From positions 1 through 40,178 of IMG/VR virus record IMGVR_UViG_3300028394_000008: a stretch of DNA of 40,178 nt, one strand, 5' to 3'. A program made the translations under genes and the position numbers. This document shows positions 11,355-33,233 of this stretch, in pieces. Origin of the DNA: a virus. The notes beneath the pieces were generated by a model. It had not been told where the DNA came from. It saw only the letters and a program-made list of their open reading frames with translations, and did no database searches. Numbering within the stretch: the first letter of the stretch is position 1; every line of letters begins with the position of its first letter.

Positions 11355-12323
11355 ATGCAAGCTAAAGTTTCTAATGGTGAATTTATACATGCATGGAATC
11401 AGTTAGGTTCTGCTGCCAAAGTAGCGGAATTTCTAGAGATGGATGAACGCGCTGTTCATCGGCGAAGACGAAGATTGGAAACGGAAACCAATCAACCGCT
11501 TGTTAATTTCCATGAAGCTGCTAGGCCGTATGCCTACATGCAACCCATCAAAACATCTCTTAATCGCGTTGAACTTGGCATACTTGATCAAACAATCATA
11601 GTCTTTTCTGACGCTCACTTTTGGCCCGGTGAATACACTACCGCTTACAAAGGGCTATTATGGGCTATCAAAGAGTTAAAGCCTCATGCCGTTATCAGTA
11701 ACGGGGATGCATTTGATGGTGCATCTATCAGCAGACATGATCCATTGGGCTGGTCCAAGACCCCTTCAGTTATAGAAGAACTAAAAGCGGTTCAGGCACA
11801 TCTTGGCGAGATAGAAGAAACAGCCAAAGCCGCTAGACACAACTGTAAACTGTTGTTCATCTGGGGCAATCACGACACCCGCTTTGCTAACAAATTAGCA
11901 GTACAAGCCCCGCAGTATCGGGAAGTGCATGGGTTTAAATTAGAAGACCATTTACCAGCCTGGGAGTTTGCATGGTCTGTTTGGCCTACGCCTGATTGCG
12001 TTATTAAACACCGTTACAAAAGCGGCGTTCATGCTGCCCATAACAATACCGTAAACGCTGGCATAAGCATTGTTACAGGCCATTTGCATAGTCTTAAAGT
12101 AGTTCCATTTGCTGACTACACGGGTAATCGTTATGGTGTAGATACTGGTACTCTTGCAGAACCTTATGGGCGACAATTTGAATACGGAGAAGACAACCCA
12201 TTAAACCACAGAAGTGGGTTTGCCGTGCTGACATTCAAGGGTGGTAAGCTTTTGTGGCCTGAGTTAGTTCACAAATGGAGCGATACTCAGGTTGAGTTTC
12301 GAGGACAAGTTATCAACCTTTAG
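11355..12323 (+). CDS. Metallophosphoesterase with N-terminal helix-turn-helix
   Basis: A 322-aa protein. Residues 7-45 read as a helix-turn-helix ('AWNQLGSAAKVAEFL ... RRRRR'). A calcineurin-type phosphoesterase core follows: 'FSDAHFWPG' (D86, H88), 'SNGDAFDG' (D118), 'IWGNHDTRFA' (GNHD 171-174), 'HAAHNN' and 'VTGHLHSLK'. All metal-binding motifs are present, so it should be active. Its substrate is unknown; phage members may act on nucleic acid ends. It follows a 49-base gap after the endolysin and precedes the acidic protein. The DNA-binding head fused to a phosphatase core suggests it works on DNA. Confidence 0.82.
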   Translation: MQAKVSNGEFIHAWNQLGSAAKVAEFLEMDERAVHRRRRRLETETNQPLVNFHEAARPYAYMQPIKTSLNRVELGILDQTIIVFSDAHFWPGEYTTAYKGLLWAIKELKPHAVISNGDAFDGASISRHDPLGWSKTPSVIEELKAVQAHLGEIEETAKAARHNCKLLFIWGNHDTRFANKLAVQAPQYREVHGFKLEDHLPAWEFAWSVWPTPDCVIKHRYKSGVHAAHNNTVNAGISIVTGHLHSLKVVPFADYTGNRYGVDTGTLAEPYGRQFEYGEDNPLNHRSGFAVLTFKGGKLLWPELVHKWSDTQVEFRGQVINL

Positions 12324-16357: not shown

Positions 16358-16533
16358 ACCGCTATGACATTGAACAGATAGCCTACCGAAGTGGGCTGAT
16401 TGGCATGGATGAGAGTGAGTCGAAAAAGACCGCTTTCTGGTCAACTTTTGAGCTGAATCTTCAACGGGAAATAGAACAGGAACAGGAAGACGCATTCCGT
16501 AAAACGGGACGCTGGGACATTTGGGAAGACTGA
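16354..16533 (+). CDS. Hypothetical 59-aa protein
   Basis: ATG at 16354 overlaps the upstream TGA and has AAGGAGAAAAC ahead, a strong ribosome site. Contains 'TAFWSTFELNLQREIEQEQE' and ends 'GRWDIWED'. Its stop overlaps the next ATG (TGATG). The coupling on both sides makes it convincing; function unknown. Confidence 0.68.
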   Translation: MNRYDIEQIAYRSGLIGMDESESKKTAFWSTFELNLQREIEQEQEDAFRKTGRWDIWED

Positions 16534-17159
16534 TGCATTACTACCAATTCAACATCGGTGACTACATAAGTCACACTCGGCATTTGAGCCTTCTAGAAGA
16601 TATTGCTTACAGGCGTTTATTAGACGAGTACTACTTGCATGAACGCCCGTTGAACAGTGGTTTAACAAGCGTTGCACGACAAATCGGAATGCTTGAACAT
16701 CAAGAGGTTGTGGCGTTTGTTCTTCAACTATTTTTTATGCTGAAAGAAGATGGAAGTGGCTGGACAAATGCCCGTTGTGACCGTGAAATAGAGCAGTACA
16801 GAGCGCGTCTCTCCAATGCAAGCAAGGCAGGTAAGGCATCTGCTGAACGCCGGTTGAACGCTAGTCCAACGCCCGTTCAACTAAACAAGAAACATAAACC
16901 AATAAATAATAATAGAGTCGCAGCACCTGACGGTGTGTCTCCAAAGGTGTGGGAATCCTTTGTTGATGCAAGAAAAGCCAAGAAAGCACCTATCACCGAA
17001 CTGGTCATTGCCGACATCAAGAAACAGGCAGCACTTGCTGGCTGGACATTGGATGCAGCCCTTGCCGAGACCGTTATCAGGGGCTGGAGAAGCTTTAAGG
17101 CCGAGTGGGTGACCAAGGCAGCACCTGTTACCGGCAACAGACTAGCGGGGGCGATATGA
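16533..17159 (+). CDS. DUF1376-type replication protein
   Basis: A 208-aa protein starting at the ATG in TGATG (an in-frame TTG at 16521 is less likely). The N-terminus 'MHYYQFNIGDYISHTRHLSL' followed by 'EDIAYRRLLDEYYLHERPL' is the DUF1376 domain of phage replication proteins. The middle is basic and probably disordered. The C-terminal helical part ('FVDARKAKKAPITELVIADI' onward) is of the type that contacts helicases. It is likely an initiator or helicase loader, with the helicase gene two genes downstream. Confidence 0.8.
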   Translation: MHYYQFNIGDYISHTRHLSLLEDIAYRRLLDEYYLHERPLNSGLTSVARQIGMLEHQEVVAFVLQLFFMLKEDGSGWTNARCDREIEQYRARLSNASKAGKASAERRLNASPTPVQLNKKHKPINNNRVAAPDGVSPKVWESFVDARKAKKAPITELVIADIKKQAALAGWTLDAALAETVIRGWRSFKAEWVTKAAPVTGNRLAGAI

Positions 17160-17449
17160 AGGGACATGACGGCATCATCAAGATGCGTATGCAGGGTTAC
17201 AAGCCGTCTGCGATCTGGCTACTTGACTACCCCTGCACAACTACCTGGGAAGAGTTTCAGGACGATCCTGTTGTGTGTGTCGATGGCGACAACTTGAATA
17301 CACTTGATTTGCGGTACACTGTTGGCTTAGATGTCCACATCAGCAGCTACAGCGTGGAACGGGCCAAGACGCTCTTGGATTTATGCATAAAGCACTCAGC
17401 AAGCAAAGTAATTGCCTGTTGCGATAACTGGATTGATTGGCATGGCTGA
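17156..17449 (+). CDS. Hypothetical 97-aa protein between replication protein and helicase
   Basis: The start at 17156 overlaps the previous stop (ATGA). Contains 'KMRMQGYKPSAIWLLDYPC', 'VCVDGDNLNTLDLRY' and 'GLDVHISSYSVERAKTLLD'. An alternating hydrophobic pattern ending 'SKVIACC' suggests a small alpha/beta fold. It overlaps the helicase start by eight bases. No family recognised, but its placement is that of a replication accessory. Confidence 0.6.
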   Translation: MKGHDGIIKMRMQGYKPSAIWLLDYPCTTTWEEFQDDPVVCVDGDNLNTLDLRYTVGLDVHISSYSVERAKTLLDLCIKHSASKVIACCDNWIDWHG

Positions 17450-18422
17450 AATATTGAGTGACACGATTGACTTCCGACTGTACCTACGGGAGACAGACGC
17501 GAAGACCAAAGTAAAAAAGGCTTCCGACTACGTTGGCGTGATTAAGAGCCGGTTGCGGGAGAAGGTCAAGCAGCATGTAACCTACTTGCCGTGGACGAAG
17601 ACCAATGAGAACTTTGAGTTTCGCAAGGGTGAAGTTACTTTGTGGTCAGGACAGAACGGGCATGGCAAATCTTTGATGACATCCCAGGTGGCTCTCAGCC
17701 TCATTGGACAGGGAGAGAAGGTGTGTGTAGCCAGTTTTGAGATGAAACCCGCCACAACCCTACAGCGGATGGCGCGGATGTGGATTGGTTGTAATCCGTT
17801 TTCGGTGGAGTTCCAAGGGGAAGACGGGATAGATGCCCTTGACAGCTTGTACGACCAGTTTGGCGATTGGACTACCGGCAGCATGTGGCTGTATGACCAA
17901 ATGGGGACTGCGGATGCCGCCACCACCATTGGCATGGTGCGGTATTGTGCGAAAGAGTTGGGGATAACTCACGTTTTTGTGGATAACTTGGCGAAGTGCG
18001 TGAAGGGTGAAGATGACTACAACGGGCAAAAGCAGTTTGTTGATGAGTTGACCTCTGTGGCTCGGGACTACGACATGCACATCCACCTTGTCCACCACTT
18101 GAAGAAGCCAGCCAATGAGAATAGCGTACCCGACAAGCACGACAACAAGGGATCAGGGGCTATTACAGACTTAGTGGACAACGTCATGCTGGTCTGGCGC
18201 AACAAGGTTAAGGAAGATGCCATCAAGGATCAAGGCGAGTTTGCGAAGCAAAGTAATGATCCTGACCATTACCTGTTGTGCCGTAAGCAGCGGAACTATG
18301 AAGGCAGCGGGGAAGGTGAGCCTACCGTAAAGCTGTGGTTTCATCGTGATGCCCAGCAATATGTTGCAGAGCCGCATGACCGGCCTTTGTTCTTTCCGAA
18401 CTATCCACACGTTGCATCATGA
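17442..18422 (+). CDS. Replicative DNA helicase (DnaB/T7 gp4/Twinkle-type RecA core)
   Basis: A 326-aa protein. Walker A 'GQNGHGKS' (70-77); catalytic Glu in 'FEMKP' (99-103); Walker B 'HVFVDN' (177-182); 'HLVHHLKKP' (H3-like, 215-223); 'KGSGAITDLVDNVM' with Arg253 in 'VWRNK'. This is the RecA-like helicase domain without a primase half, so priming must come from the host or an unrecognised protein. It unwinds the fork, moving along one strand as a hexamer. It overlaps the MTase start by four bases (ATGA). Confidence 0.9.
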   Translation: MAEILSDTIDFRLYLRETDAKTKVKKASDYVGVIKSRLREKVKQHVTYLPWTKTNENFEFRKGEVTLWSGQNGHGKSLMTSQVALSLIGQGEKVCVASFEMKPATTLQRMARMWIGCNPFSVEFQGEDGIDALDSLYDQFGDWTTGSMWLYDQMGTADAATTIGMVRYCAKELGITHVFVDNLAKCVKGEDDYNGQKQFVDELTSVARDYDMHIHLVHHLKKPANENSVPDKHDNKGSGAITDLVDNVMLVWRNKVKEDAIKDQGEFAKQSNDPDHYLLCRKQRNYEGSGEGEPTVKLWFHRDAQQYVAEPHDRPLFFPNYPHVAS

Positions 18423-19924
18423 AATTTTTATCTGTTTGTAGCGGGATTGAGGCGGCAAGCGTTGCCTGGCATCCATTGGGATGGGAATCGGTAGCCTATT
18501 CGGAAATTGAACCTTTCCCATGCAAGGTGCTACAGCACCACTATCCAGACGTACCCAACTTGGGCGATATGACCAAATTTAAGGAGTGGCCTGATGCAGA
18601 TGTCGATGTTTTCGTTGGAGGAACACCATGTCAGTCTTTCTCAGTCGCAGGACTCAGAAAAGGATTGGATGACCCGCGTGGCAACCTCATGCTTGTCTAC
18701 CTTGCCATTGCTAAACGATATCGCCCCAACTGGCTGGTCTGGGAGAACGTCCCCGGCGTTTTGTCCTCCGCTGGAGGACGGGACTTTGGTTCCTTCCTCG
18801 GAGGGTTGGCAATCCTCGGGTATGGGTTCGCATACCGGGTGCTTGACGCTCAATATTTCGGAGTGGCACAGCGACGCCGCCGTGTGTTCGTTGTCGGATA
18901 CCTTGGAGATTGGCGACCTGCCGCAGCGGTTCTTTTTGAGCGCCACAGCCTGTCGGGGCATCCTGCGCCGAGCCGAGAAAAGGGGAAAAGTTTTGCCAGA
19001 GATGTTAGAGAAGGCGCTCAAATCGGTAGATGGCCCGCTGACGTAAGCAGCACATTGGATACGACATTTGGCACAAAAATGGGATTGGAAAATCAGCACG
19101 TCAATGCTGGTTGTCCTATGTTTGTTCCAGCGCAACCTATTGCACTTGCTGAGAACACCATAGGACGAAAACCAGAGAATGGTGGCAACGGTGATGGGTT
19201 TACTGATGGCGGCCCAATGTATACGCTCAACGCTACAGGTGTGCATGGTGTGGCGCAACCGATTGCATTCAGCGGGCAGATGTCAAACCCGCAGACTGAT
19301 GTGGACATGACTCAGACATTAGGAGCCAAGAATCCAATGGCGGTGGCAACGCATGATGTAGCTGGAACTATGCTTTCACGCAACACATCAGGCGGGTTTA
19401 GCAACAGCATTGATTATGCTGCGGCTGGATATATGGCGCTGCAAGCAATGGCAGTCATGCAACCCATTGCATACGCCTTTGACAGCCTATCCTCCAACTC
19501 CATGAAGTCAAGCAATCCCGATAGCGGTGTCAATCAAGTTGATGTTTCAAAAACTTTAGACACTTCTAGAGGGCTTGACCCGTCTTGCCATCAGGGTGGG
19601 TTAGGGTTGGTTCAAGCAATGGCGGTGGCGACTTCAGTTGTAGCCCCGACATTGACAGCCGCCAATGACCCAAGTCGTTCTCCGCAATCTTCTGAAGTCA
19701 CCCAACAGGTGTATTCGGTCTTGCAAGCATCAATGGCGGTACGCCGTTTGACCCCTGTGGAATGCGAACGTCTCCAAGGCTTTGGCGACAACTACACCGA
19801 CATTCAGCCCAAAGGCAAGGCGACCCCTGACGGGCCAAGGTACAAGGCGCTGGGCAACTCAATGGCTGTGCCTGTGATGGCATGGATTGGCAAAAGAATT
19901 CAAGAGGTTGACGCTTTGCTATGA
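18419..19924 (+). CDS. C5 cytosine DNA methyltransferase
   Basis: A 501-aa protein. Motif I 'SVCSGIEAA' (5-13), motif IV 'GGTPCQSFS' with catalytic Cys71, motif VI 'WENV' (108-111), motif VIII 'QRRRR' (151-155), and the C-terminal motifs 'RRLTPVECERLQGF' (from 442) and 'ALGNSMAVPV' (from 477). All key motifs are present, so it should be active. The region 160-440 is unusually long and Ser/Thr/Asn/Met-rich with repeated 'QPIA', 'TL' and 'QAMAV' units, probably an expanded recognition domain. No restriction partner is encoded, so self-protection against host restriction is the likely role. Confidence 0.93.
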   Translation: MKFLSVCSGIEAASVAWHPLGWESVAYSEIEPFPCKVLQHHYPDVPNLGDMTKFKEWPDADVDVFVGGTPCQSFSVAGLRKGLDDPRGNLMLVYLAIAKRYRPNWLVWENVPGVLSSAGGRDFGSFLGGLAILGYGFAYRVLDAQYFGVAQRRRRVFVVGYLGDWRPAAAVLFERHSLSGHPAPSREKGKSFARDVREGAQIGRWPADVSSTLDTTFGTKMGLENQHVNAGCPMFVPAQPIALAENTIGRKPENGGNGDGFTDGGPMYTLNATGVHGVAQPIAFSGQMSNPQTDVDMTQTLGAKNPMAVATHDVAGTMLSRNTSGGFSNSIDYAAAGYMALQAMAVMQPIAYAFDSLSSNSMKSSNPDSGVNQVDVSKTLDTSRGLDPSCHQGGLGLVQAMAVATSVVAPTLTAANDPSRSPQSSEVTQQVYSVLQASMAVRRLTPVECERLQGFGDNYTDIQPKGKATPDGPRYKALGNSMAVPVMAWIGKRIQEVDALL

Positions 19925-20968: not shown

Positions 20969-21337
20969 ATGAATGAAATTTATAGAGACAAATCCCTGCT
21001 GAAGCTGGCACAAGACCAATTTTGCCTTTTGAGGGTCAAAAACTTTTGCCGGGGGGGGTCTGATTCCACAGTTGCTTGTCATCACAATTCTGCGATGTCT
21101 GGGAAGGGAATGGGCATCAAGGCTAGTGATGCCTACAGCGTATGGGGGTGCTTTGGATGCCACCAATGGCTGGATCAGGGATCTGCCAGCAAAGAAGAAA
21201 AAGAAGAAGCATTCCAGGCCGCTCATTTGCTCCAAGTAGCAGAGTGGCATAAAATCGCCAATAACATTGCCACCAGACCTTGGAAGGTGGAAGCAGCCCG
21301 AAACGTCCTCAATCACTTGGGAATCAATCATGGATAA
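20969..21337 (+). CDS. YbcO/DUF1364-type nuclease
   Basis: A 122-aa protein; ATG at 20969 is preferred over a TTG at 20960. The order 'LLKLAQDQFCLLR', 'STVACHHN', 'SGKGMGIKASDAYSVWGC' and 'CFGCHQWLDQG' is the family signature of DUF1364/YbcO, an HNH-like beta-beta-alpha metal fold (Cys27, Cys37/His38, Cys61, Cys64/His65 as ligands). These are putative recombination nucleases. An eight-G run (21051-21058) is in frame, so the gene is intact. Confidence 0.85.
   Translation: MNEIYRDKSLLKLAQDQFCLLRVKNFCRGGSDSTVACHHNSAMSGKGMGIKASDAYSVWGCFGCHQWLDQGSASKEEKEEAFQAAHLLQVAEWHKIANNIATRPWKVEAARNVLNHLGINHG
21034..21063. repeat. Copy 1 of GGTCAAAAACTTTTG + G-run + TCT
   Basis: GGTCAAAAACTTTTG (21034-21048) followed by CC, eight G's and TCT. 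The same 15 bases followed by a G-rich run and TCT recur at 21731. This copy lies inside the DUF1364 coding sequence. Confidence 0.75.
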
Positions 21338-21689
21338 AGTAGCCGACTTCATTTTGACCCTGCTCCATGCAGCCACCAACACCCATATCCTGCATTGGCA
21401 AGCCACCCGATACGGCGAACATCAAGCCCTGGGCGAGTTTTATACCGGCCTTCCCGAACTGATAGACCAGTTGACCGAAGCCCTGATGGGCCGCTATGAG
21501 ATGCAACCACAATTCCCGCTTTCATATCATGGCCCCAACCCTGACAGCTTGCAGGAACTGGTAACGCTAAAACAGTACGTTGAGCAGGAAAGACAGGGGC
21601 TTCCGCAAGACAGCGAAATCCAAAACCTTATTGACGAAATTGCACAGAGCATTGATTCCACAATCTACAAGTTGAAATTTCTCGGATAG
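21330..21689 (+). CDS. Dps/ferritin-like DUF5856-type protein
   Basis: The start 'MDKVADFILTLLHAATNTHI' at 21330 is chosen; it overlaps the previous stop by eight bases. 119 aa. 'HWQATRYGEHQALGEFYTGL' carries the His and Glu residues placed as in Dps-like ferritin helices, and the four-helix layout fits. Phage members of this type are known from T4-like viruses. Could bind metal or DNA; the exact role is unknown. Last gene of the replication operon. Confidence 0.7.
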   Translation: MDKVADFILTLLHAATNTHILHWQATRYGEHQALGEFYTGLPELIDQLTEALMGRYEMQPQFPLSYHGPNPDSLQELVTLKQYVEQERQGLPQDSEIQNLIDEIAQSIDSTIYKLKFLG

Positions 21690-21759: not shown

Positions 21760-21956
21760 TCATGTATGCGTACACACATGCACACACGCCCGCACCCGCA
21801 CCCACGCGCACCCACCCATGCGCCTACGCGCACCCATACGCGCACATCACGCGCACGCGCACCCACACGCTCGCACGCGCTCGCGCACCATGCATACGCA
21901 CGACACACGCATGCGAGACAAACCCACACGATCACCGATAGCCCATAAAGGCACTT

Positions 21957-22120
21957 AAAACGGCTTACAGCGCATTTTTTGTCTGTAGTGCATGGCAATG
22001 TAGCACCACACGCAGAAAACGGCTTAAAACGGCTCTATTCAAACCACGCCCACAATGGGCGCACCTATCCCGGTTCGCTATGGGTAAACAATGGGCGCAC
22101 CGATCCAATGGCGCACCGAT
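21957..22120. repeat. Iteron-like words AAAACGGCT and ACAATGGGCGCACC
   Basis: AAAACGGCT occurs at 21957, 22016 and 22026 (the first two followed by TA). ACAATGGGCGCACC occurs exactly at 22052-22065 and 22088-22101, with a one-base-shorter relative CAATGGCGCACCGAT at 22106-22120 (CGAT also follows the second copy). Clustered short direct repeats next to a low-complexity tract are typical of initiator-binding sites. Confidence 0.6.
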
Positions 22121-22138
22121 TCACGGGCGCACAAACGC

Positions 22139-22161
22139 AAAAACCCGCACAGTGGCGGGTT
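22139..22161 (-). terminator. Rho-independent terminator of the GP88 unit
   Basis: Perfect inverted repeat AACCCGC (22142-22148) / GCGGGTT (22155-22161) with a six-base loop. On the - strand it is followed by five T's (22139-22143, partly within the stem). It lies 18 bases past the stop of the gene at 22179. Confidence 0.82.
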
Positions 22162-22178
22162 ATTGGATGATCAATCTA

Positions 22179-23057
22179 TCAGTGCACGGCGATCGCGATC
22201 GTGATCCCTTTGAGTGTAGACATGCCGCATGCATGCCCTTTGCCGGTGCACGATCCGCATGCGCCGGGGCACGGGAAAATCTTTTCACCGGGAAAAGCTT
22301 CGCGCAGTGCCTTGTTGACCGATGCTGTACCGTGATCATTGGATCGCACAGTGCGACCGATGTTAACAGCGATAAATTCACCCCGCGTGATAGGCAAAGC
22401 TTTGACATAGCGAACGATCGCGTCGCTAGCATTGTGTCCGCTCGAGATGTTCAAATGGTAATTTGTAGGCCAATCGCTATTTGTACCGGTGTCATAGCCT
22501 AAAAGGATCGCAAAGCTTTTCGAATAGCCATAGGCGCGCACCAATGGGTGAGCTTTGATAATTTGCATCCAGAAATAGACATCGGCGGCACTAGAAAAAT
22601 CACCGTCAACGTACAAACGAAAATCGAATCCTTCGGGCCGCTCATTAGCTATTGTGGCGAATGCATCGGCAATAACATCGGGCGCAAAGCGTAAAAAATA
22701 AGCATTTTGCACCATACGGGCAAATGCATTAGGGTATCTCCATGCACGATATGAGTAACAGAATTTAATGCATTCACCCGCGCCCGGACATGTAACACCG
22801 GGCAAAGTAGAAAACGCTACAAAGGGTAATTTTTCGTTACCTTGTAAAGCAAAAATAGAAAAACGCGGTTTATTGTCTGCAAATGCATTGGCAAGCAAAT
22901 TAAAAGCTTTCTGCCAGCCTACGGTAGAGAATGCATCATCGGTTTGTAGTTGCAACAATGCACGGGAAATTTCTACAGTGCCGCCGGTTTGCACTGCTAT
23001 CGATAGATTTTGCAGTTTGTTAAATTTTGGTGCGGTATTAAATGTCTTAATTTGCAT
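22179..23057 (-). CDS. GP88-family Cys-motif protein
   Basis: A 292-aa protein resembling the phage 'gene 88' family (PF17338 from memory). Residues 70-110 contain 'CPGAGECIKFC' (C90, C96, C100) followed by 'YRAWRYPNAF'. The middle has 'DFRLYVDGDFSS'. The end has 'CPGACGSCTGKGHACG' (C263, C267, C270, C277). Seven clustered cysteines suggest iron-sulphur or zinc binding; some predictions place the family near radical-SAM folds, which I cannot confirm. The gene is rich in GATC, ATGCAT and GCA words unlike its neighbours, a hint of transfer. It is the last gene of a separate - strand unit with its own terminator. Confidence 0.75.
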   Translation of the reverse strand: MQIKTFNTAPKFNKLQNLSIAVQTGGTVEISRALLQLQTDDAFSTVGWQKAFNLLANAFADNKPRFSIFALQGNEKLPFVAFSTLPGVTCPGAGECIKFCYSYRAWRYPNAFARMVQNAYFLRFAPDVIADAFATIANERPEGFDFRLYVDGDFSSAADVYFWMQIIKAHPLVRAYGYSKSFAILLGYDTGTNSDWPTNYHLNISSGHNASDAIVRYVKALPITRGEFIAVNIGRTVRSNDHGTASVNKALREAFPGEKIFPCPGACGSCTGKGHACGMSTLKGITIAIAVH

Positions 23058-23102
23058 GATAAATCCTATTGAATTACATTAATTTGAATAAAAGAAAACC
23101 AA

Positions 23103-23189
23103 TTACATATTATAAAAATACATAATCAAGGGAAAAGATAATACAAACGCTATTGCAAAGCATTTAGAAAAAAAAATAATGGTTTTCAT
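23103..23189 (-). CDS. Possible 28-aa hydrophobic micro-peptide
   Basis: ATG at 23189 overlaps the TGA of the 66-aa gene (ATGA) and the frame is open for 28 codons to TAA. The product is almost all hydrophobic ('IIFFSKCFAIAFVLSFPLIM'), a single membrane helix. The coupling favours expression, but the surrounding A/T-rich DNA could give this by chance. Confidence 0.45.
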   Translation of the reverse strand: MKTIIFFSKCFAIAFVLSFPLIMYFYNM

Positions 23190-23386
23190 GCTTGCGCTCC
23201 ATTGGCAGATAGTGCGAATTGAATCGCTTCGATCAATGCATGGGCTTGTTCACGGGTAAGAGTAGCGCGAGCAGAGCCTCCACGCACCATTACAGACAGA
23301 GACAGGCCGTTATCCCATTCGTCAGTGTAGATAGCCGTGTTGTCGCTGCACTCTGTGCGGAGCTGATAGTCGATTAGATGTTCCAT
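23186..23386 (-). CDS. Hypothetical 66-aa protein
   Basis: The start 'MEHLIDYQLRTECS' at 23386 is supported by AGGAAA eight bases upstream; a longer in-frame reading to 23422 lacks this. It ends 'TREQAHALIEAIQFALSAN', a helix. It is the first gene of the GP88 unit. No family recognised. Confidence 0.65.
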   Translation of the reverse strand: MEHLIDYQLRTECSDNTAIYTDEWDNGLSLSVMVRGGSARATLTREQAHALIEAIQFALSANGAQA

Positions 23387-23926
23387 TGTGTGCTTTCCTA
23401 TTGGTTGAACAAGTAGGGGCAAAAATGCTGCCCTTACACATATATAGCATAATAGAATCGTGCCAGAGTCTGTAAGTCCTTGATTTATAAGACTGCTCCA
23501 AAACCCTAATGGTTATCCATACAGTACAGGCACTTGATATAAGTCAATCAAGTAGATTTAGTACTGCAGCCGATTAGAGCCATTATTTCTGCGCCATGTA
23601 GGGTGGGTACGAAAAGAAAAACAAAGAGAACCTAGGGCCATTGTGTGCTTCTGTTGTAGGGGAACACAGAGGAGAGACACACGGCTGCACTCATGTTTCC
23701 AGCGTCTGACTAGTGCGGGTTAACCCTACCCAAACCCCAAAAGTGATCGGGCCCCCATCCTCTCCCATTTCCATACCCCCCTCCCACTACGCAGAACCCC
23801 CCCCCAACGCTATGGCTAGGATAGAGGGGGTAGCCCTGCTAGGGTGAGCTAATAGGGGGGGCCGGTCACCCATCCCCAAAATTTTCACAGAACTTTTTCC
23901 CCAACTACTAGTGCAATAGCCGTTTC
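23387..23926. other. Non-coding regulatory/packaging candidate region
   Basis: About 540 bases without a credible gene. It holds a palindrome GGGTTAACCC (23717-23726), a nine-C run (23797-23805), a seven-G run (23855-23861) that could pair with it, CCCTGCTAGGG near 23834, and a repeated leader word CCATTGTGTGCTT (23383-23395 and 23638-23650). A possible - strand promoter is CTTACA (complement of 23471-23476), 16 bases, TATTAT (complement of 23449-23454). It sits directly ahead of the packaging and head genes. Confidence 0.5.
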
Positions 23927-26678: not shown

Positions 26679-26866
26679 TAGAAGAGCCTACAAACCTCTT
26701 CCGTCAAAAGCTACCGGCTCAATCCGAGGTTTGTGCGCGTAAGGCTCTTGAGTGGCTTCAGAAAGATTTGCAGCATGAGCATTCTTTAAGCCCTCAAGAT
26801 GTCTACTATCTAGCGTCCGCTGCCCAAATTCTTTTGGACATCCGCGACTTGTATGGCAAAAAGTGA
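26675..26866 (+). CDS. Hypothetical 63-aa protein before terL
   Basis: ATG at 26675 overlaps the previous stop (ATGA). Helical: 'EVCARKALEWLQKDLQHEHS', 'DVYYLASAAQILLDIRDL'. It overlaps terL by 14 bases. It could itself be a small terminase partner by position, but its size is short for one. Confidence 0.6.
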   Translation: MIEEPTNLFRQKLPAQSEVCARKALEWLQKDLQHEHSLSPQDVYYLASAAQILLDIRDLYGKK

Positions 26867-28445
26867 AGCCAGTGATTACATCCTTCCTATCTACAAGGAT
26901 CGGGCGCTCAAGCATCTAATTAAGCTGGTGGGAGGTAAGAGTGCTATTAAGCACCTAGCCCCTGAACAACTGCAAAAGATGCGAACCGCCAGGGATGTGG
27001 TTGCCAAAGACATGCAGTTCAATGCTTTGAAATGGTTCAGGCCGTTCAAGTATCAGGAAGAATTCTTTGCCACAGGCGCAACCCATGCCCGTAGGGGAAT
27101 GATTGCAGCCAACCGTGCCGGTAAGACCATTGCGTCTACCTATGAGACTGCCTACCACCTGACCGGCAGGTATCCAAAAAACTGGAAAGGCATGAAATGG
27201 GACAAGCCCATCATTGCTATGGCATCCGGTGAATCATGGGAGCAGGTATCCAAGACCCTGCAAAACAAACTGCTTGGGTGTGATGACATCAAGCAATCGT
27301 ACAAATTAGGAACAGGCTCTATTCCACGGGAATGCATTGATGAAAAATCCATGCGTACCGATGGAGCCAATGTTCTGGCAATTGAAGTGTGGCATGAATC
27401 TGGTGGTAAATCAAAACTCTATTTCTCCAACTACACGCAACAAGTGCGTCACCTGCAAGGTTTTGAACTTGACTTGGTTGTCTTGGACGAACAGCCTCCC
27501 GATGAAACATTCTCCGAACTGGTTGTCCGTACAGCCCAACGCAATGGACAAGTATTGTGTTCGTTTACGCCTCTCAAAGGTATGTCAGGTCTAGTACGAA
27601 AGTTCTGGGACAAAATTGACGGGTACACCCATGTGCGTGTTACTTGGGATGACGTACCATTTAAGAATGAATGGGATGAAGAGTTTTTCTCCCAAAAAGA
27701 ACGGGATCAGTTAAGCCGAGACTTTATGCCGTGGGAACGGGAATGCCGTATGAAGGGTATTCCTTTGGTAGGCAAAGGCGTGGTATTCCCATTGCTGAAC
27801 TGGCCTACATACAAATCTACCGACATTGATCTGAAAAACGATCCTGCTTTGGAGCGGTTGATTTCTTTTGACTTGGGCATTAAGAATGACCCAACGGTCA
27901 TCAGCTTTTTCTTCAGAAACCCCGTAGAAGAAACGATTTATCTAAATAAACAGATAAAAATTGCTAAAGGGGAGACCCCAGATGAATATGTTCACTTTCT
28001 GATGGACAGGGAATCAAAAAACGTGCCTATTGCTTTGCCCCATGATGCGGCTCAGGCTGGGCGGTATACTTTGACCGAACAATCTGTCCGCGAAGTGTTT
28101 GAGGACAGCTATGGGCTAAACTGCATCCCAGGCGCTATATTGAACCCCGTAAATGACCAAGGCAAGGTTACAAACCACAAGTCTTACGGAATCAATATAA
28201 TGCGGATGGGAATGGAGCGCGGGACGTTTATGATAAACGAATCCTGCACCGACTTTTTGGATGAGGCACGAAACTATGCTATTGACGATGCTGGACGCTT
28301 TTCTGATCCTGATGATCACATTGACTCTGCGCGGATTGGTATTTTGGCGTTAATCCAAGGTCATGGTGAATCAATGGTAAGCCGAGCCAATACATTCCAA
28401 TTCCGCAGACCATCCACGGTTGAAGGCAAGGTTCAAAGGATTTAA
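26853..28445 (+). CDS. terL: Terminase large subunit
   Basis: A 530-aa protein. ATPase part: Walker A 'AANRAGKT' (85-92), Walker B 'LDLVVLDE' (206-213), 'CSFTPLKG' coupling region (about 236-243). Nuclease part: 'ISFDLGIKNDPTVI' (Asp340), 'LPHDAAQ' (His397-Asp398), 'DPDDHIDSARIG' (Asp487-491). All motifs of a packaging motor with RNase-H-like nuclease are present. It threads DNA into the prohead and cuts it. The portal follows after one base. Confidence 0.95.
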   Translation: MAKSEASDYILPIYKDRALKHLIKLVGGKSAIKHLAPEQLQKMRTARDVVAKDMQFNALKWFRPFKYQEEFFATGATHARRGMIAANRAGKTIASTYETAYHLTGRYPKNWKGMKWDKPIIAMASGESWEQVSKTLQNKLLGCDDIKQSYKLGTGSIPRECIDEKSMRTDGANVLAIEVWHESGGKSKLYFSNYTQQVRHLQGFELDLVVLDEQPPDETFSELVVRTAQRNGQVLCSFTPLKGMSGLVRKFWDKIDGYTHVRVTWDDVPFKNEWDEEFFSQKERDQLSRDFMPWERECRMKGIPLVGKGVVFPLLNWPTYKSTDIDLKNDPALERLISFDLGIKNDPTVISFFFRNPVEETIYLNKQIKIAKGETPDEYVHFLMDRESKNVPIALPHDAAQAGRYTLTEQSVREVFEDSYGLNCIPGAILNPVNDQGKVTNHKSYGINIMRMGMERGTFMINESCTDFLDEARNYAIDDAGRFSDPDDHIDSARIGILALIQGHGESMVSRANTFQFRRPSTVEGKVQRI

Positions 28446-28446
28446 C

Positions 28447-30606
28447 ATGCTTGATAAACAAAACATCATCGTAGAGTACATCGAGGCTCCCTCTGGTAAT
28501 AAAGGCATTGTTTTTCAGGTAGCCCATGAGGTCTATCTAAAAATGGTGGACTATCTACGGTTAACTCAAGCAAAAAATACTTTTAACCGCCTTTCTGATT
28601 ACCACTATTTAAATATTGCGGTTAGTAATTCCACAGAGCCAATCCGTGGTATTGATTACATCCATCCTGTAGTCAACCCAGGCGTAGATTACGCAACGGC
28701 AATCATCACTAAGTGCTTGATGCCAAACGGAAAAGTTAATTTTGAGTTTGAGCGTTTTAGTGAATTGGATAGCGAGCAAGCCGTCCAAGCTACTGAAATG
28801 GTCAAGTACATGATTAACAGTAAGAACGATTCTTACCAAATCATTCGGGATTGGGCGCAAGACTCCCTGCTACATAAAAACGGTATTGTGATGGTGTCAC
28901 CTGTACGGGAACCTATTACTCAATACAAAGACGTTGAAGGAACAAGAGACCAATTGCGCGTGTTTGAGACTATGGCGGCAGACAAAGGTCTTACTGTTAA
29001 ACGTCAGAACATGCGAAAGATTGATGTGGATCTTGCTGCTGCCGCCCAAGAAACAATGGGTGGAGACCAGCAAGATAATCCAATGGAAAGCATTAGCGAC
29101 TCGCTAAATTCCCACACCATTTACCGCGCTCAATACAAGATGACGGGCTTTTCTACATCCGTCCGTATTAAACACGTTGCACAACATTACTTTGTCTGCA
29201 ACCCTACTATCTCCAACATTCAAGACCAAGACTTTTTGGGCTTTTATGATCCAATGACTATCCATGAGTGCAAAGCTCAATTCCCGTATGTGGACATTGA
29301 GAAACTTGCAGATCATGCGGCCTACGGCCCTGCTGGAGCGTACCAAGCTGGTGCATTGGAGAATGACCTAGCCCTACATGCCCGTGACTCTACTCCCGTC
29401 CCTGGACAAGGCGTAATTGCCTCCGCAGGTGCAGATCGGTACAGCCGAGTCATTATGCTGACTACCGCATGGCTGCGTAAAGATGTGGATGGTGACGGCG
29501 AAGAAGAAATCGTAGAGGTTTGCTTTTCGGGTTCTTATGTGCTGTATGTCAAGGAAGTGGACTTTATTCCTTTGGCAAGCATGTGTCCTAAACCGATTAC
29601 CGGCAACTTCTTTGGTTACTCCCTTGCAGAGCGTCTGGTTCCTATGCAGGAATACGCTACCGCAATTGCCCGTGCAGAGATGGCGTTTGCCATGCAAGCA
29701 TCTACCCCAAGGATTGGTGTCAACCCTGAATTTATTGATGCAGAAGAAATCCAACGTGGCGTGTCTGCCATGTTTATTCTAGATCGCAAATTTGACTCCA
29801 ACAAGCACGTTTTTGAATTCCAGCCCATGCAGGGTAACCTTGCCTACGTTCAATCGTCTATGCAACGATTTGAAGCCGACAAAATGGCAATGATTGGTAT
29901 GACTAGTCCAAGTGATGTCATGAATCCTGAAGTAATGAAGGATGGCAACAGCGGGTTCAAGTTGCAACTGGCTATGGGTCCAAACCAACTTATCCAAGAT
30001 GAGATGGTTAAAAACTGTGCAATTGGTCTGCGGGATGTGATTTACATTGTCTGGAAAACCTTGATTCAGTATTCGGACGATTACAACATCCAGCAACTGG
30101 CCAATGTATGCGCCCAGGGCAAGCCATTCATGGATGCCAAGTCTATGGACAACTATGAGTTTATTGACCGCAAACTAATCAACATTGATTTGGCTTTGGG
30201 TTTCATGTCTGATGAAAACCGCCTTACCCGTCAACAATTGATTGGTCAGGCTCAACAGGCATTTGCTCAATCGGTAATGCAACTTGACCCAAGTGTTCCT
30301 GAGTTGTTTGCCAAAGTCCGTAGACCATATGAAGATACTTTGCGCGTACTAGGTGTAAAAGATGTAGACGCTTATCTGCCAACCTTGGAAGAAGCAGCTA
30401 AGATGTTCCAAGCTAAGTCGCAACAGCCGCCTAGCCCTGAGCATGAAGAAATTTCTTCTCGCACCGCTTTGAATAAAGCCAAAACAGATGAAACTGTAGC
30501 TAAAACTTTGTTTACGCAGAAAAAAGCGGAAGACGTTGATACTGATAACATGTTTGAAGCCTTGGCTGCAAAAAGAGGTAAACTTAGTGCGGTAGAAATT
30601 GATTAA
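28447..30606 (+). CDS. Portal protein (P22-like)
   Basis: A 719-aa protein. The start at 28447 has AAAGGA ahead; an in-frame TTG at 28420 overlaps terL. The size and the stretch 'VIMLTTAWLRKDVDGDGEEE' (Asp-Gly-Asp-Gly pattern), 'FIPLASMCPKPITGNFFGYS' and 'SLAERLVPMQEYATAIARAE' match P22-like podovirus portals. The C-terminal 100 residues are helical ('AFAQSVMQLDPS' onward), the likely barrel. It forms the ring through which DNA enters and leaves. Adjacent to terL and the scaffold gene. Confidence 0.92.
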   Translation: MLDKQNIIVEYIEAPSGNKGIVFQVAHEVYLKMVDYLRLTQAKNTFNRLSDYHYLNIAVSNSTEPIRGIDYIHPVVNPGVDYATAIITKCLMPNGKVNFEFERFSELDSEQAVQATEMVKYMINSKNDSYQIIRDWAQDSLLHKNGIVMVSPVREPITQYKDVEGTRDQLRVFETMAADKGLTVKRQNMRKIDVDLAAAAQETMGGDQQDNPMESISDSLNSHTIYRAQYKMTGFSTSVRIKHVAQHYFVCNPTISNIQDQDFLGFYDPMTIHECKAQFPYVDIEKLADHAAYGPAGAYQAGALENDLALHARDSTPVPGQGVIASAGADRYSRVIMLTTAWLRKDVDGDGEEEIVEVCFSGSYVLYVKEVDFIPLASMCPKPITGNFFGYSLAERLVPMQEYATAIARAEMAFAMQASTPRIGVNPEFIDAEEIQRGVSAMFILDRKFDSNKHVFEFQPMQGNLAYVQSSMQRFEADKMAMIGMTSPSDVMNPEVMKDGNSGFKLQLAMGPNQLIQDEMVKNCAIGLRDVIYIVWKTLIQYSDDYNIQQLANVCAQGKPFMDAKSMDNYEFIDRKLINIDLALGFMSDENRLTRQQLIGQAQQAFAQSVMQLDPSVPELFAKVRRPYEDTLRVLGVKDVDAYLPTLEEAAKMFQAKSQQPPSPEHEEISSRTALNKAKTDETVAKTLFTQKKAEDVDTDNMFEALAAKRGKLSAVEID

Positions 30607-32075: not shown

Positions 32076-33233
32076 ATGTCTACTATCACTAGTGCCAACC
32101 TTGGCAACGGTAACGGTTCGTATACCACCGACATCGTGGTCAAAGACCTCGATATGACTGTCTCTAACTATGTTAAAGACCGTACCCCTCTAACCAACAT
32201 GGCAATGAGCAAGAAGCGCAAAGTCAATTCGACTCTGCACATCTGGCCTGTTGACTACTACCGTGTTCCCGCTTTGAATGCAAAGCTGGAAGGCGCTGCT
32301 GTAGCCGCATCTGATGCTGCTAACAACACCCGTGCTAACTGCGGCAACTACACCCAGATTTTTACTACCGTGATTGGTGCTACTGGCACTGCTCGCGCTG
32401 TGGAACAAGCTGGTGGAGATCCCCAAGCGTATCAAGAAGTCAAGCAATTGACCGAGATCATGTTTGATGTGGAACTGCAATTGGTTCGTGCTGATGGTGC
32501 TTCTATCAAATACAGCGGTCAAGCTGCAACCCAGGGTTCTAGCCCTAACAATGGTCGCCGTTTGGGTTCGTTGTATTCTTTTGCTGGAACTCGTTCTGGT
32601 AATGATACTGATGGCACTTCTGTGTTGAACATTGCTACCTCTGACGGTAATGATGTTACTTCCGCAACCAACACCAACCAACCGTTCAATGGCTTGCTGT
32701 CTAACGCTGGTCTGGGCTACTTCACTTTTTCAAGTGGCGTTACCCTTCAGCAATTCAGCCCGTACTTGTACAAGCAATTGGTAACCACCGCTGAACAGCG
32801 CTTCAATGCCAAGATTACTAACATGGTTGTTCCCACTTCCATGCGTACTCACATCTCGGACATGATGCCTACCAGCCGCTCTATCAACCGTTTTAACCCT
32901 GCTGACAAGGGTGATACGATTGGTACTTACGAAGGTGACTTCAACTACACCTACCAAATCGATGATTCTTGGGTGATGGATCAAACCGGGGCTGATAACA
33001 CCTCCGCGCTGTTCCTGAATCCTGATGTCATCCAATGGGGTTCCTTGCGTGAACTTGGCCCGAATAACGAAGTGTTCAGTTCTGCTGACGCATCGTTGGA
33101 TCAGTACATCATGGAAGGCACGCTGATTGTGCGTAACCCTGCTGGTGTGGCTGTTCTGGCGGCAATTAGCCCAACTGGTGCTGCTGTTACGGCTCCCCGT
33201 ACCTCCACCCAGTGCCAGCGCTATTTGACATAA
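32076..33233 (+). CDS. Major capsid protein (SU10/DUF5309-type)
   Basis: A 385-aa protein with an AGGAG site before the ATG. The opening 'DIVVKDLDMTVSNYVKDRTP' followed by 'HIWPVDYYRVPALNAKLEGA' is characteristic of the SU10/DUF5309 HK97-fold capsid proteins. 'YTQIFTTVIGATGTARAVEQ' and 'YEGDFNYTYQIDDSWV' are further family-like stretches. It is expected to be expressed at very high level, and a strong terminator follows five bases later. Confidence 0.93.
   Translation: MSTITSANLGNGNGSYTTDIVVKDLDMTVSNYVKDRTPLTNMAMSKKRKVNSTLHIWPVDYYRVPALNAKLEGAAVAASDAANNTRANCGNYTQIFTTVIGATGTARAVEQAGGDPQAYQEVKQLTEIMFDVELQLVRADGASIKYSGQAATQGSSPNNGRRLGSLYSFAGTRSGNDTDGTSVLNIATSDGNDVTSATNTNQPFNGLLSNAGLGYFTFSSGVTLQQFSPYLYKQLVTTAEQRFNAKITNMVVPTSMRTHISDMMPTSRSINRFNPADKGDTIGTYEGDFNYTYQIDDSWVMDQTGADNTSALFLNPDVIQWGSLRELGPNNEVFSSADASLDQYIMEGTLIVRNPAGVAVLAAISPTGAAVTAPRTSTQCQRYLT

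What the first reader, a model, noticed from the sequence alone, without database searches (positions are those of the whole stretch)
22179..23386. Isolated GP88 unit with seven clustered cysteines and foreign-looking DNA
A self-contained - strand unit (66-aa protein, possible 28-aa membrane peptide, 292-aa GP88-type protein, terminator) is inserted between the replication and late blocks. The GP88 protein has C90/C96/C100 near one end and C263/C267/C270/C277 near the other, suggesting a metal cluster built from both ends. Word usage (GATC, ATGCAT) differs from neighbours. The biochemical role of this family is, to my knowledge, unresolved.
Basis: partly seen in the sequence, partly recalled or inferred. 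Interest (0 to 1): 0.62.

Follow-up and report, generated by a model that had tools for sequence, protein, structure and literature searches.

The report
Viral GP88: radical-SAM-like iron-sulfur enzyme
A phage gene of unknown function encodes a protein whose seven cysteines never change in its 59 aligned relatives and whose predicted shape most resembles enzymes that do free-radical chemistry with an iron-sulfur cluster, which suggests that a widespread viral family is an unrecognised branch of such enzymes.

Summary
The gene is real: 22179-23057 (-), 292 aa, Pfam GP88 (E 4e-19). All seven cysteines are invariant in 60 sequences down to 33% identity. It is not foreign and not an insertion: GC and codon usage are ordinary, and in 56 of 60 loci GP88 starts at the same divergent junction with the late genes; it looks isolated because the replication block runs the other way in the window's clade. 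The AlphaFold2 model (pLDDT 94) has a partial beta/alpha barrel whose sixteen best solved matches are all radical-SAM enzymes, spore photoproduct lyase first (Z 9.2); a model of a distant GP88 also ranks that enzyme first (Z 7.1). C90-x5-C96-x3-C100-Tyr and a GDF motif sit where radical-SAM enzymes have CX3CX2C and GGE. The three N-terminal cysteines are universal, the four C-terminal ones subfamily-specific, so I favour two sites (a three-Cys [4Fe-4S]/SAM site plus a four-Cys auxiliary site) over one cluster built from both ends. Substrate unknown; a nucleic acid or nucleotide is a guess. Metal, SAM binding, activity and Cys distances are not shown. GP88 is also related to DUF5131.

The parts
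22179..23057 (-). GP88 protein, 292 aa; radical-SAM-like barrel with N-terminal three-Cys motif and C-terminal four-Cys element
   Evidence: PF17338 E 4.4e-19; 44 viral relatives at 54-100% identity; AlphaFold2 pLDDT 93.7
22758..22790 (-). codons for C90-x5-C96-x3-C100 and neighbouring residues, invariant; proposed [4Fe-4S]/SAM site, followed by invariant Y101
   Evidence: 67/67 in the combined alignment; 92/92 core-type members
22596..22619 (-). codons for R147-L-Y-V-D-G-D-F154, end of the second core strand; proposed counterpart of the radical-SAM GGE motif
   Evidence: R147, G152, D153, F154 invariant 67/67; strand 145-148 in the model
22227..22271 (-). codons for C263-x3-C267-x2-C270-x6-C277, C-terminal four-Cys element; proposed auxiliary metal site
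   Evidence: invariant 60/60 in the window's subfamily; absent from most core-type members
23186..23386 (-). 66-aa ORF upstream of GP88, unproven gene
   Evidence: ORF; no convincing homologue except an identical contig
23103..23189 (-). 28-aa hydrophobic ORF, start overlaps the 66-aa stop (ATGA), unproven gene
   Evidence: ORF; no homologue found
22142..22161 (-). terminator-like hairpin after GP88
   Evidence: 7-pair stem followed by T run; number of such sites in the region is near chance

Best explanation
GP88 is a non-canonical, radical-SAM-like iron-sulfur enzyme of viruses. C90, C96 and C100 would hold a [4Fe-4S] cluster whose open iron binds S-adenosylmethionine (SAM) inside a partial beta/alpha barrel; the GDF motif, K180 and S205 would line the SAM site; Y101, next to the third cysteine, may take part in radical transfer as the equivalently placed tyrosine of spore photoproduct lyase does. 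In this subfamily a C-terminal four-cysteine element would bind a second metal centre (auxiliary Fe-S cluster or zinc). It is a non-structural gene read divergently from the late genes; the leading guess for its substrate is a nucleic acid or nucleotide. Shown: invariance of the residues, the predicted fold and its closest matches, conserved gene position, relation to DUF5131. Inferred: cluster, SAM binding, roles of single residues, second metal centre, substrate.
For: Seven cysteines invariant in 60 sequences down to 33% identity. Confident model (pLDDT 93.7) whose sixteen best VIA-align matches are all radical-SAM enzymes (spore photoproduct lyase Z 9.2, QueE 7.6, lipoyl synthase 6.5, TYW1 6.4, TsrM 6.1, anSME 5.7, MqnE 5.6; first other barrel 5.4). 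Independent model of a distant, core-type GP88 (pLDDT 95.8) again ranks spore photoproduct lyase first (7.1-6.8, next unrelated row 5.0). Order of elements fits: strand, three-Cys loop, helix, strand ending in GDF, helix, strand. Tyrosine directly after the third cysteine is invariant, as in spore photoproduct lyase (PMC3742179). Triad universal, C-terminal four subfamily-specific. Neighbours of core-type GP88 include DNA-metabolism genes: phrog_284 exonuclease, ParB_N, TET-associated glycosyltransferase.
Against: The cysteine motif is CX5-6CX3C, not CX3CX2C; there is no Pfam or NCBIfam radical-SAM match; Foldseek against PDB is not significant and a Z of 7-9 is moderate; no coordinates, hence no check of cysteine geometry; the substrate class rests on analogy and on neighbours of other GP88 subfamilies, not of this one.
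Confidence: 0.6

Rival explanations
1. One reading: one metal cluster built from both ends of the chain, with the N-terminal three and C-terminal four cysteines sharing one site.
For: All seven cysteines are invariant together in the window's subfamily; both ends lie in the same folded domain (residues 75-292 align as one barrel).
Against: 92/92 core-type members keep the triad and 83 of them have no cysteine in the C-terminal part; seven cysteines match a three-ligand plus a four-ligand site better than one cluster.
Confidence: 0.1
2. Non-catalytic metal protein: the cysteines bind zinc or a structural Fe-S cluster and the barrel is a degenerate relative of radical-SAM enzymes that serves as a binding or regulatory protein.
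For: The GGE motif is replaced by GDF and the cysteine spacing is non-canonical; phages often carry small host-takeover proteins.
Against: Polar residues of the presumed pocket (R147, D153, N199, S205 invariant; K180 in 65 of 67) are conserved across very divergent members, which suggests catalysis.
Confidence: 0.17
3. Another barrel enzyme class, for example a zinc-dependent nucleobase-exchanging enzyme (tRNA-guanine transglycosylase or DpdA type), which only resembles radical-SAM folds.
For: Beta/alpha barrels resemble one another and other barrels follow at Z 5.4 and below.
Against: The first sixteen rows are all radical-SAM enzymes and the distant model repeats it; the universal triad lies in the loop after the first core strand. 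No such transferase was listed, which excludes nothing.
Confidence: 0.08

Closest known systems
Pfam PF17338 GP88 (PHROG 1392; namesake a mycobacteriophage gene 88)
   Same: Profile match over the cut-off; C-x5/6-C-x3-C-Tyr, GDF, Tyr-x-Lys, Asn and Ser positions shared
   Different: About 70-residue N-terminal helical cap and a C-terminal C-x3-C-x2-C-x6-C element, absent from core-type members
DUF5131 (PF07505, phage Gp37/Gp68)
   Same: Detectable homology: one ORF scores above both families' cut-offs; three-Cys motif ending in Cys-Tyr-Ala, SDLF for GDFF
   Different: Spacing C-x6-C-x2-C; no C-terminal four-Cys element seen in the ORFs read; the window protein itself does not match PF07505
Spore photoproduct lyase (radical SAM, DNA repair)
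   Same: Best solved match for two GP88 models (Z 9.2 and 7.1); tyrosine directly after the third cluster cysteine
   Different: Canonical CX3CX2C; sequence identity 7-15% in the structural alignments; thymine-dimer repair not implied
Radical-SAM enzymes with extra C-terminal cysteine clusters (SPASM/Twitch type)
   Same: Barrel plus further C-terminal cysteines; anSME and SpeY appear among the matches (Z 5.7 and 5.0)
   Different: Here the C-terminal element is only about 30 residues long; no SPASM or Twitch family profile matched

Membership tests
GP88 (PF17338) | Profile match above the curated cut-off | tested here: met
   69.7 bits against 24.4
GP88 (PF17338) | Conserved C-x5/6-C-x3-C-Tyr and GDF motifs | tested here: met
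   invariant in 67/67 including window and distant members
Radical SAM superfamily | Partial beta/alpha barrel of radical-SAM type | tested here: inconclusive
   predicted model; top 16 VIA-align rows all radical SAM, best Z 9.2; second model Z 7.1; Foldseek not significant
Radical SAM superfamily | Canonical CX3CX2C motif | tested here: not met
   C90-x5-C96-x3-C100; other three-cysteine motifs are known to support the chemistry (PMC3742179), so this lowers membership in the canonical family, not the mechanism
Radical SAM superfamily | Match to radical-SAM sequence profiles | tested here: not met
   no match in Pfam or NCBIfam at E up to 1
Radical SAM superfamily | [4Fe-4S] cluster, SAM binding and reductive SAM cleavage | not testable with these tools
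   needs purified protein
DUF5131 (PF07505) | Profile match above the cut-off | tested here: not met
   window protein has no PF07505 match; family-level homology is supported
Spore photoproduct lyase | Catalytic cysteine (C140/C141) in the active site and thymine-dimer repair | not testable with these tools
   no residue-level superposition was returned; the activity needs biochemistry

The most novel reading that the evidence does not exclude
GP88 and DUF5131 form an unrecognised, virus-rich branch of radical-SAM enzymes with a CX5-6CX3CY (or CX6CX2CY) cluster motif, spread over phages and archaeal viruses, that chemically modifies or repairs viral or host nucleic acids; the window's subfamily adds a C-terminal auxiliary cluster.
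Probability: 0.35. Interest if true: 0.75.

Novelty: new variant of a known kind. Interest (0 to 1): 0.52.

Why it matters
A radical-SAM-like assignment turns an unnamed family into one with a concrete test (cluster, SAM cleavage, cysteine mutants). If true, many viruses make a radical enzyme with a non-standard motif that routine annotation misses.

Tried and rejected
Horizontal insertion or foreign unit: rejected (ordinary GC and codon usage; conserved position; tree). GATC as a family mark: rejected. ATGCAT as a free-standing DNA element: the sites sit mostly on conserved residues, although the excess over synonymous shuffles (92 against 46) is not seen in other genes of the same loci (28 against 46). 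Link of the window's own metallophosphoesterase (11355-12323) to the phrog_284 exonucleases beside core-type GP88: no sequence similarity. Defence-system membership: no PADLOC hit. Solved structures by sequence: no convincing match. Profile comparison with lipoyl synthase, with dihydrodipicolinate synthase as control: nothing in either, so a sequence-level link to a classical radical-SAM family was not found. Foldseek alone against PDB: no significant match for either model. No tRNA-guanine transglycosylase or DpdA appeared among the structural matches, which excludes nothing. Literature: no paper on PF17338 or the 'GP88 family'; the only Gp37/Gp68 mention calls it an ssDNA-annealing protein in a table, without a test. 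Screens of mycobacteriophage genes name a 'gp88', but that is gene numbering; I did not read them.

Full report
What is there. The window is a 40,178-base virus record. The ORF at 22179-23057 on the minus strand encodes 292 residues and matches Pfam PF17338, GP88, with 69.7 bits against a cut-off of 24.4, and PHROG 1392 of unknown function. Upstream lie a 66-aa ORF (23186-23386) and a 28-aa hydrophobic ORF that starts inside the 66-aa stop codon (ATGA); neither has a convincing homologue near GP88 in relatives apart from an identical contig. A GC-rich hairpin with a T tail follows the GP88 stop (22161-22142). Late genes (terminase 26853-28445, portal 28420-30606, major head protein 32076-33233) lie to the right and replication genes (primosomal protein 16521-17159, DnaB-like helicase 17412-18422) and a cytosine methylase (18419-19924) to the left, all on the plus strand.

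Not an insertion and not foreign. Across 60 related loci with enough called upstream sequence, 56 have their upstream genes mostly on the opposite strand; the terminase and portal clusters lie there only in that orientation. In 49 of 63 loci the genes downstream run with GP88 and often include a primase-helicase. In the window and 13 other loci they run against it. On a GP88 tree the strand of the downstream block changes four times at minimum, and most of the reversed loci, the window among them, fall in one supported 18-row clade. The simplest reading is that the replication side was turned around while GP88 stayed at the junction with the late genes. GC is 0.466 (window 0.460) and codon usage ranks in the middle of the window's genes. 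The excess of GATC and ATGCAT is real for this copy, but GATC is not enriched in relatives (134 seen, 134 expected), and ATGCAT recurs there mostly where the conserved residues His-Ala-Cys, Asn-Ala-aromatic and the C-terminal Met-His are encoded.

The cysteines. In an alignment of 60 sequences (the window and viral or metagenome-assembled contigs, 33-70% identical to it), C90, C96, C100, C263, C267, C270 and C277 are all invariant. More distant GP88s from Streptomyces phages and plasmids and a methanogen virus keep the first three but not the C-terminal set. The mycobacteriophage type and Streptomyces phage Wakanda carry four C-terminal cysteines too, with other spacing. A further 92 core-type members from viral contigs all have C-x5/6-C-x3-C-Tyr, and 83 have no cysteine in the C-terminal part. 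The triad is thus the family's site and the C-terminal four are an addition.

Fold. AlphaFold2 on the 60-row alignment gives pLDDT 93.7 and pTM 0.91: an N-terminal helical cap (10-61), a short strand (80-82), the Cys loop, helices, a strand (145-148) that runs into the DGDF motif, and then alternating helices and strands. Foldseek against PDB is not significant (best E 0.056). Realignment of its candidates by VIA-align puts sixteen entries first that are all radical-SAM enzymes: spore photoproduct lyase (Z 9.2, rmsd 4.3, 196 aligned), QueE 7.6, lipoyl synthase 6.5, TYW1 6.4, TsrM 6.1, anSME 5.7 and MqnE 5.6; the first other barrel has 5.4. A second model, of a distant core-type GP88 (pLDDT 95.8), ranks four spore photoproduct lyase entries first (7.1-6.8) with the next unrelated row at 5.0. 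These Z-values are moderate, so the argument rests on the agreement of the top rows in two models, the order of strands and loops, and the three-Cys loop lying where radical-SAM enzymes keep theirs. In spore photoproduct lyase the residue after the third cluster cysteine is a tyrosine of the radical relay (PMC3742179); in GP88 that position is an invariant tyrosine. Among viral models the matches are other GP88 proteins, including ones from a haloarchaeal and a Nitrosopumilus virus, a Gp37/Gp68-like protein and a DUF7227 protein.

Relation to DUF5131. One bacterial ORF scores 343.5 bits for DUF5131 and 32.8 bits for GP88, above GP88's own cut-off. Profile alignment of distant GP88s with DUF5131 (E 0.0046, low probability score) places CYA on CYA, GDFF on SDLF and YTK on LTK. 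Lipoyl synthase and a dihydrodipicolinate synthase control give nothing. From memory only: DUF5131 is the 'three-Cys-motif' protein named in the annotation of its partner TcmP, and its motif has been called reminiscent of radical SAM. I found no paper that tests it.

How it most likely works (inferred). The triad holds a [4Fe-4S] cluster, SAM binds the free iron, and the GDF motif, K180 and S205 contact SAM in place of the usual GGE and ribose motifs. Reductive cleavage makes a 5'-deoxyadenosyl radical that attacks the substrate. In this subfamily the C-terminal four cysteines hold a second centre that passes electrons, binds substrate or stabilises the fold. Substrate: unknown. The best structural match works on DNA, and others (TYW1, QueE) work on tRNA or on a nucleobase precursor. 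In the wider family a phrog_284 exonuclease gene often lies just upstream, and ParB_N and TET-associated glycosyltransferase genes are found nearby. A nucleic acid or nucleotide is therefore the leading guess, at about one in three. None of these neighbours sits beside the window's own GP88.

Limits. No coordinates were returned, so distances between cysteines and the superposition on a SAM site could not be checked; metal, SAM binding and activity are untested; Pfam and NCBIfam give no radical-SAM match for the window protein. For these reasons I do not file it as a canonical radical-SAM member, but say that it most likely works like one. Gene neighbourhoods were read from mechanical ORF calls, so small genes are uncertain.

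Noticed in passing
window 21760-21930: A long alternating GT/GC-rich stretch (GTGCGCGTGCGCGTGATGTGCGCG...) between the replication block and GP88, of a type that could form Z-DNA, with a five-copy imperfect 34-nt repeat family.
   Followed up: no
window 22052-22125: Direct repeats of ACAATGGGCGCACC(T/G)ATCC and GGCGCACCGAT(C/T)CA just past the GP88 terminator-like hairpin; purpose unknown.
   Followed up: no
window 23383-23395 and 23638-23650: Identical 13-nt copies of AAGCACACAATGG (- strand), one over the start codon of the 66-aa ORF and one 255 bases upstream at another ATG; the only two copies of the 10-nt core in the window.
   Followed up: partly
GP88 genes of the relatives in alignment A2: ATGCAT is about twice as common as in synonymous shuffles in GP88 genes (92 against 46) but depleted in other genes of the same loci (28 against 46); it sits mostly on conserved residue pairs, and why those codons are preferred is unexplained.
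   Followed up: partly
window 21267-21689: DUF5856 / phrog_858 protein ('starvation-inducible transcriptional regulator' in PHROGs) convergent with GP88; a related gene lies in the same place and orientation in eight loci, relation to GP88 untested.
   Followed up: partly
L122:5593-6567: A GP88 from a Marinimicrobia assembly has about a dozen extra residues between the second and third cluster cysteines (C-x5-C-x16-C), so the third cysteine tolerates a long insertion before it.
   Followed up: no
L202:3649-5717, and L210, L211, L214, L217, L222, L223, L230, L268-L270, L274, L275: A phrog_284 exonuclease-family gene directly precedes core-type GP88, often within 1-40 bases, both in Streptomyces phages (annotated metallophosphoesterase in Gilgamesh) and in metagenome contigs.
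   Followed up: partly
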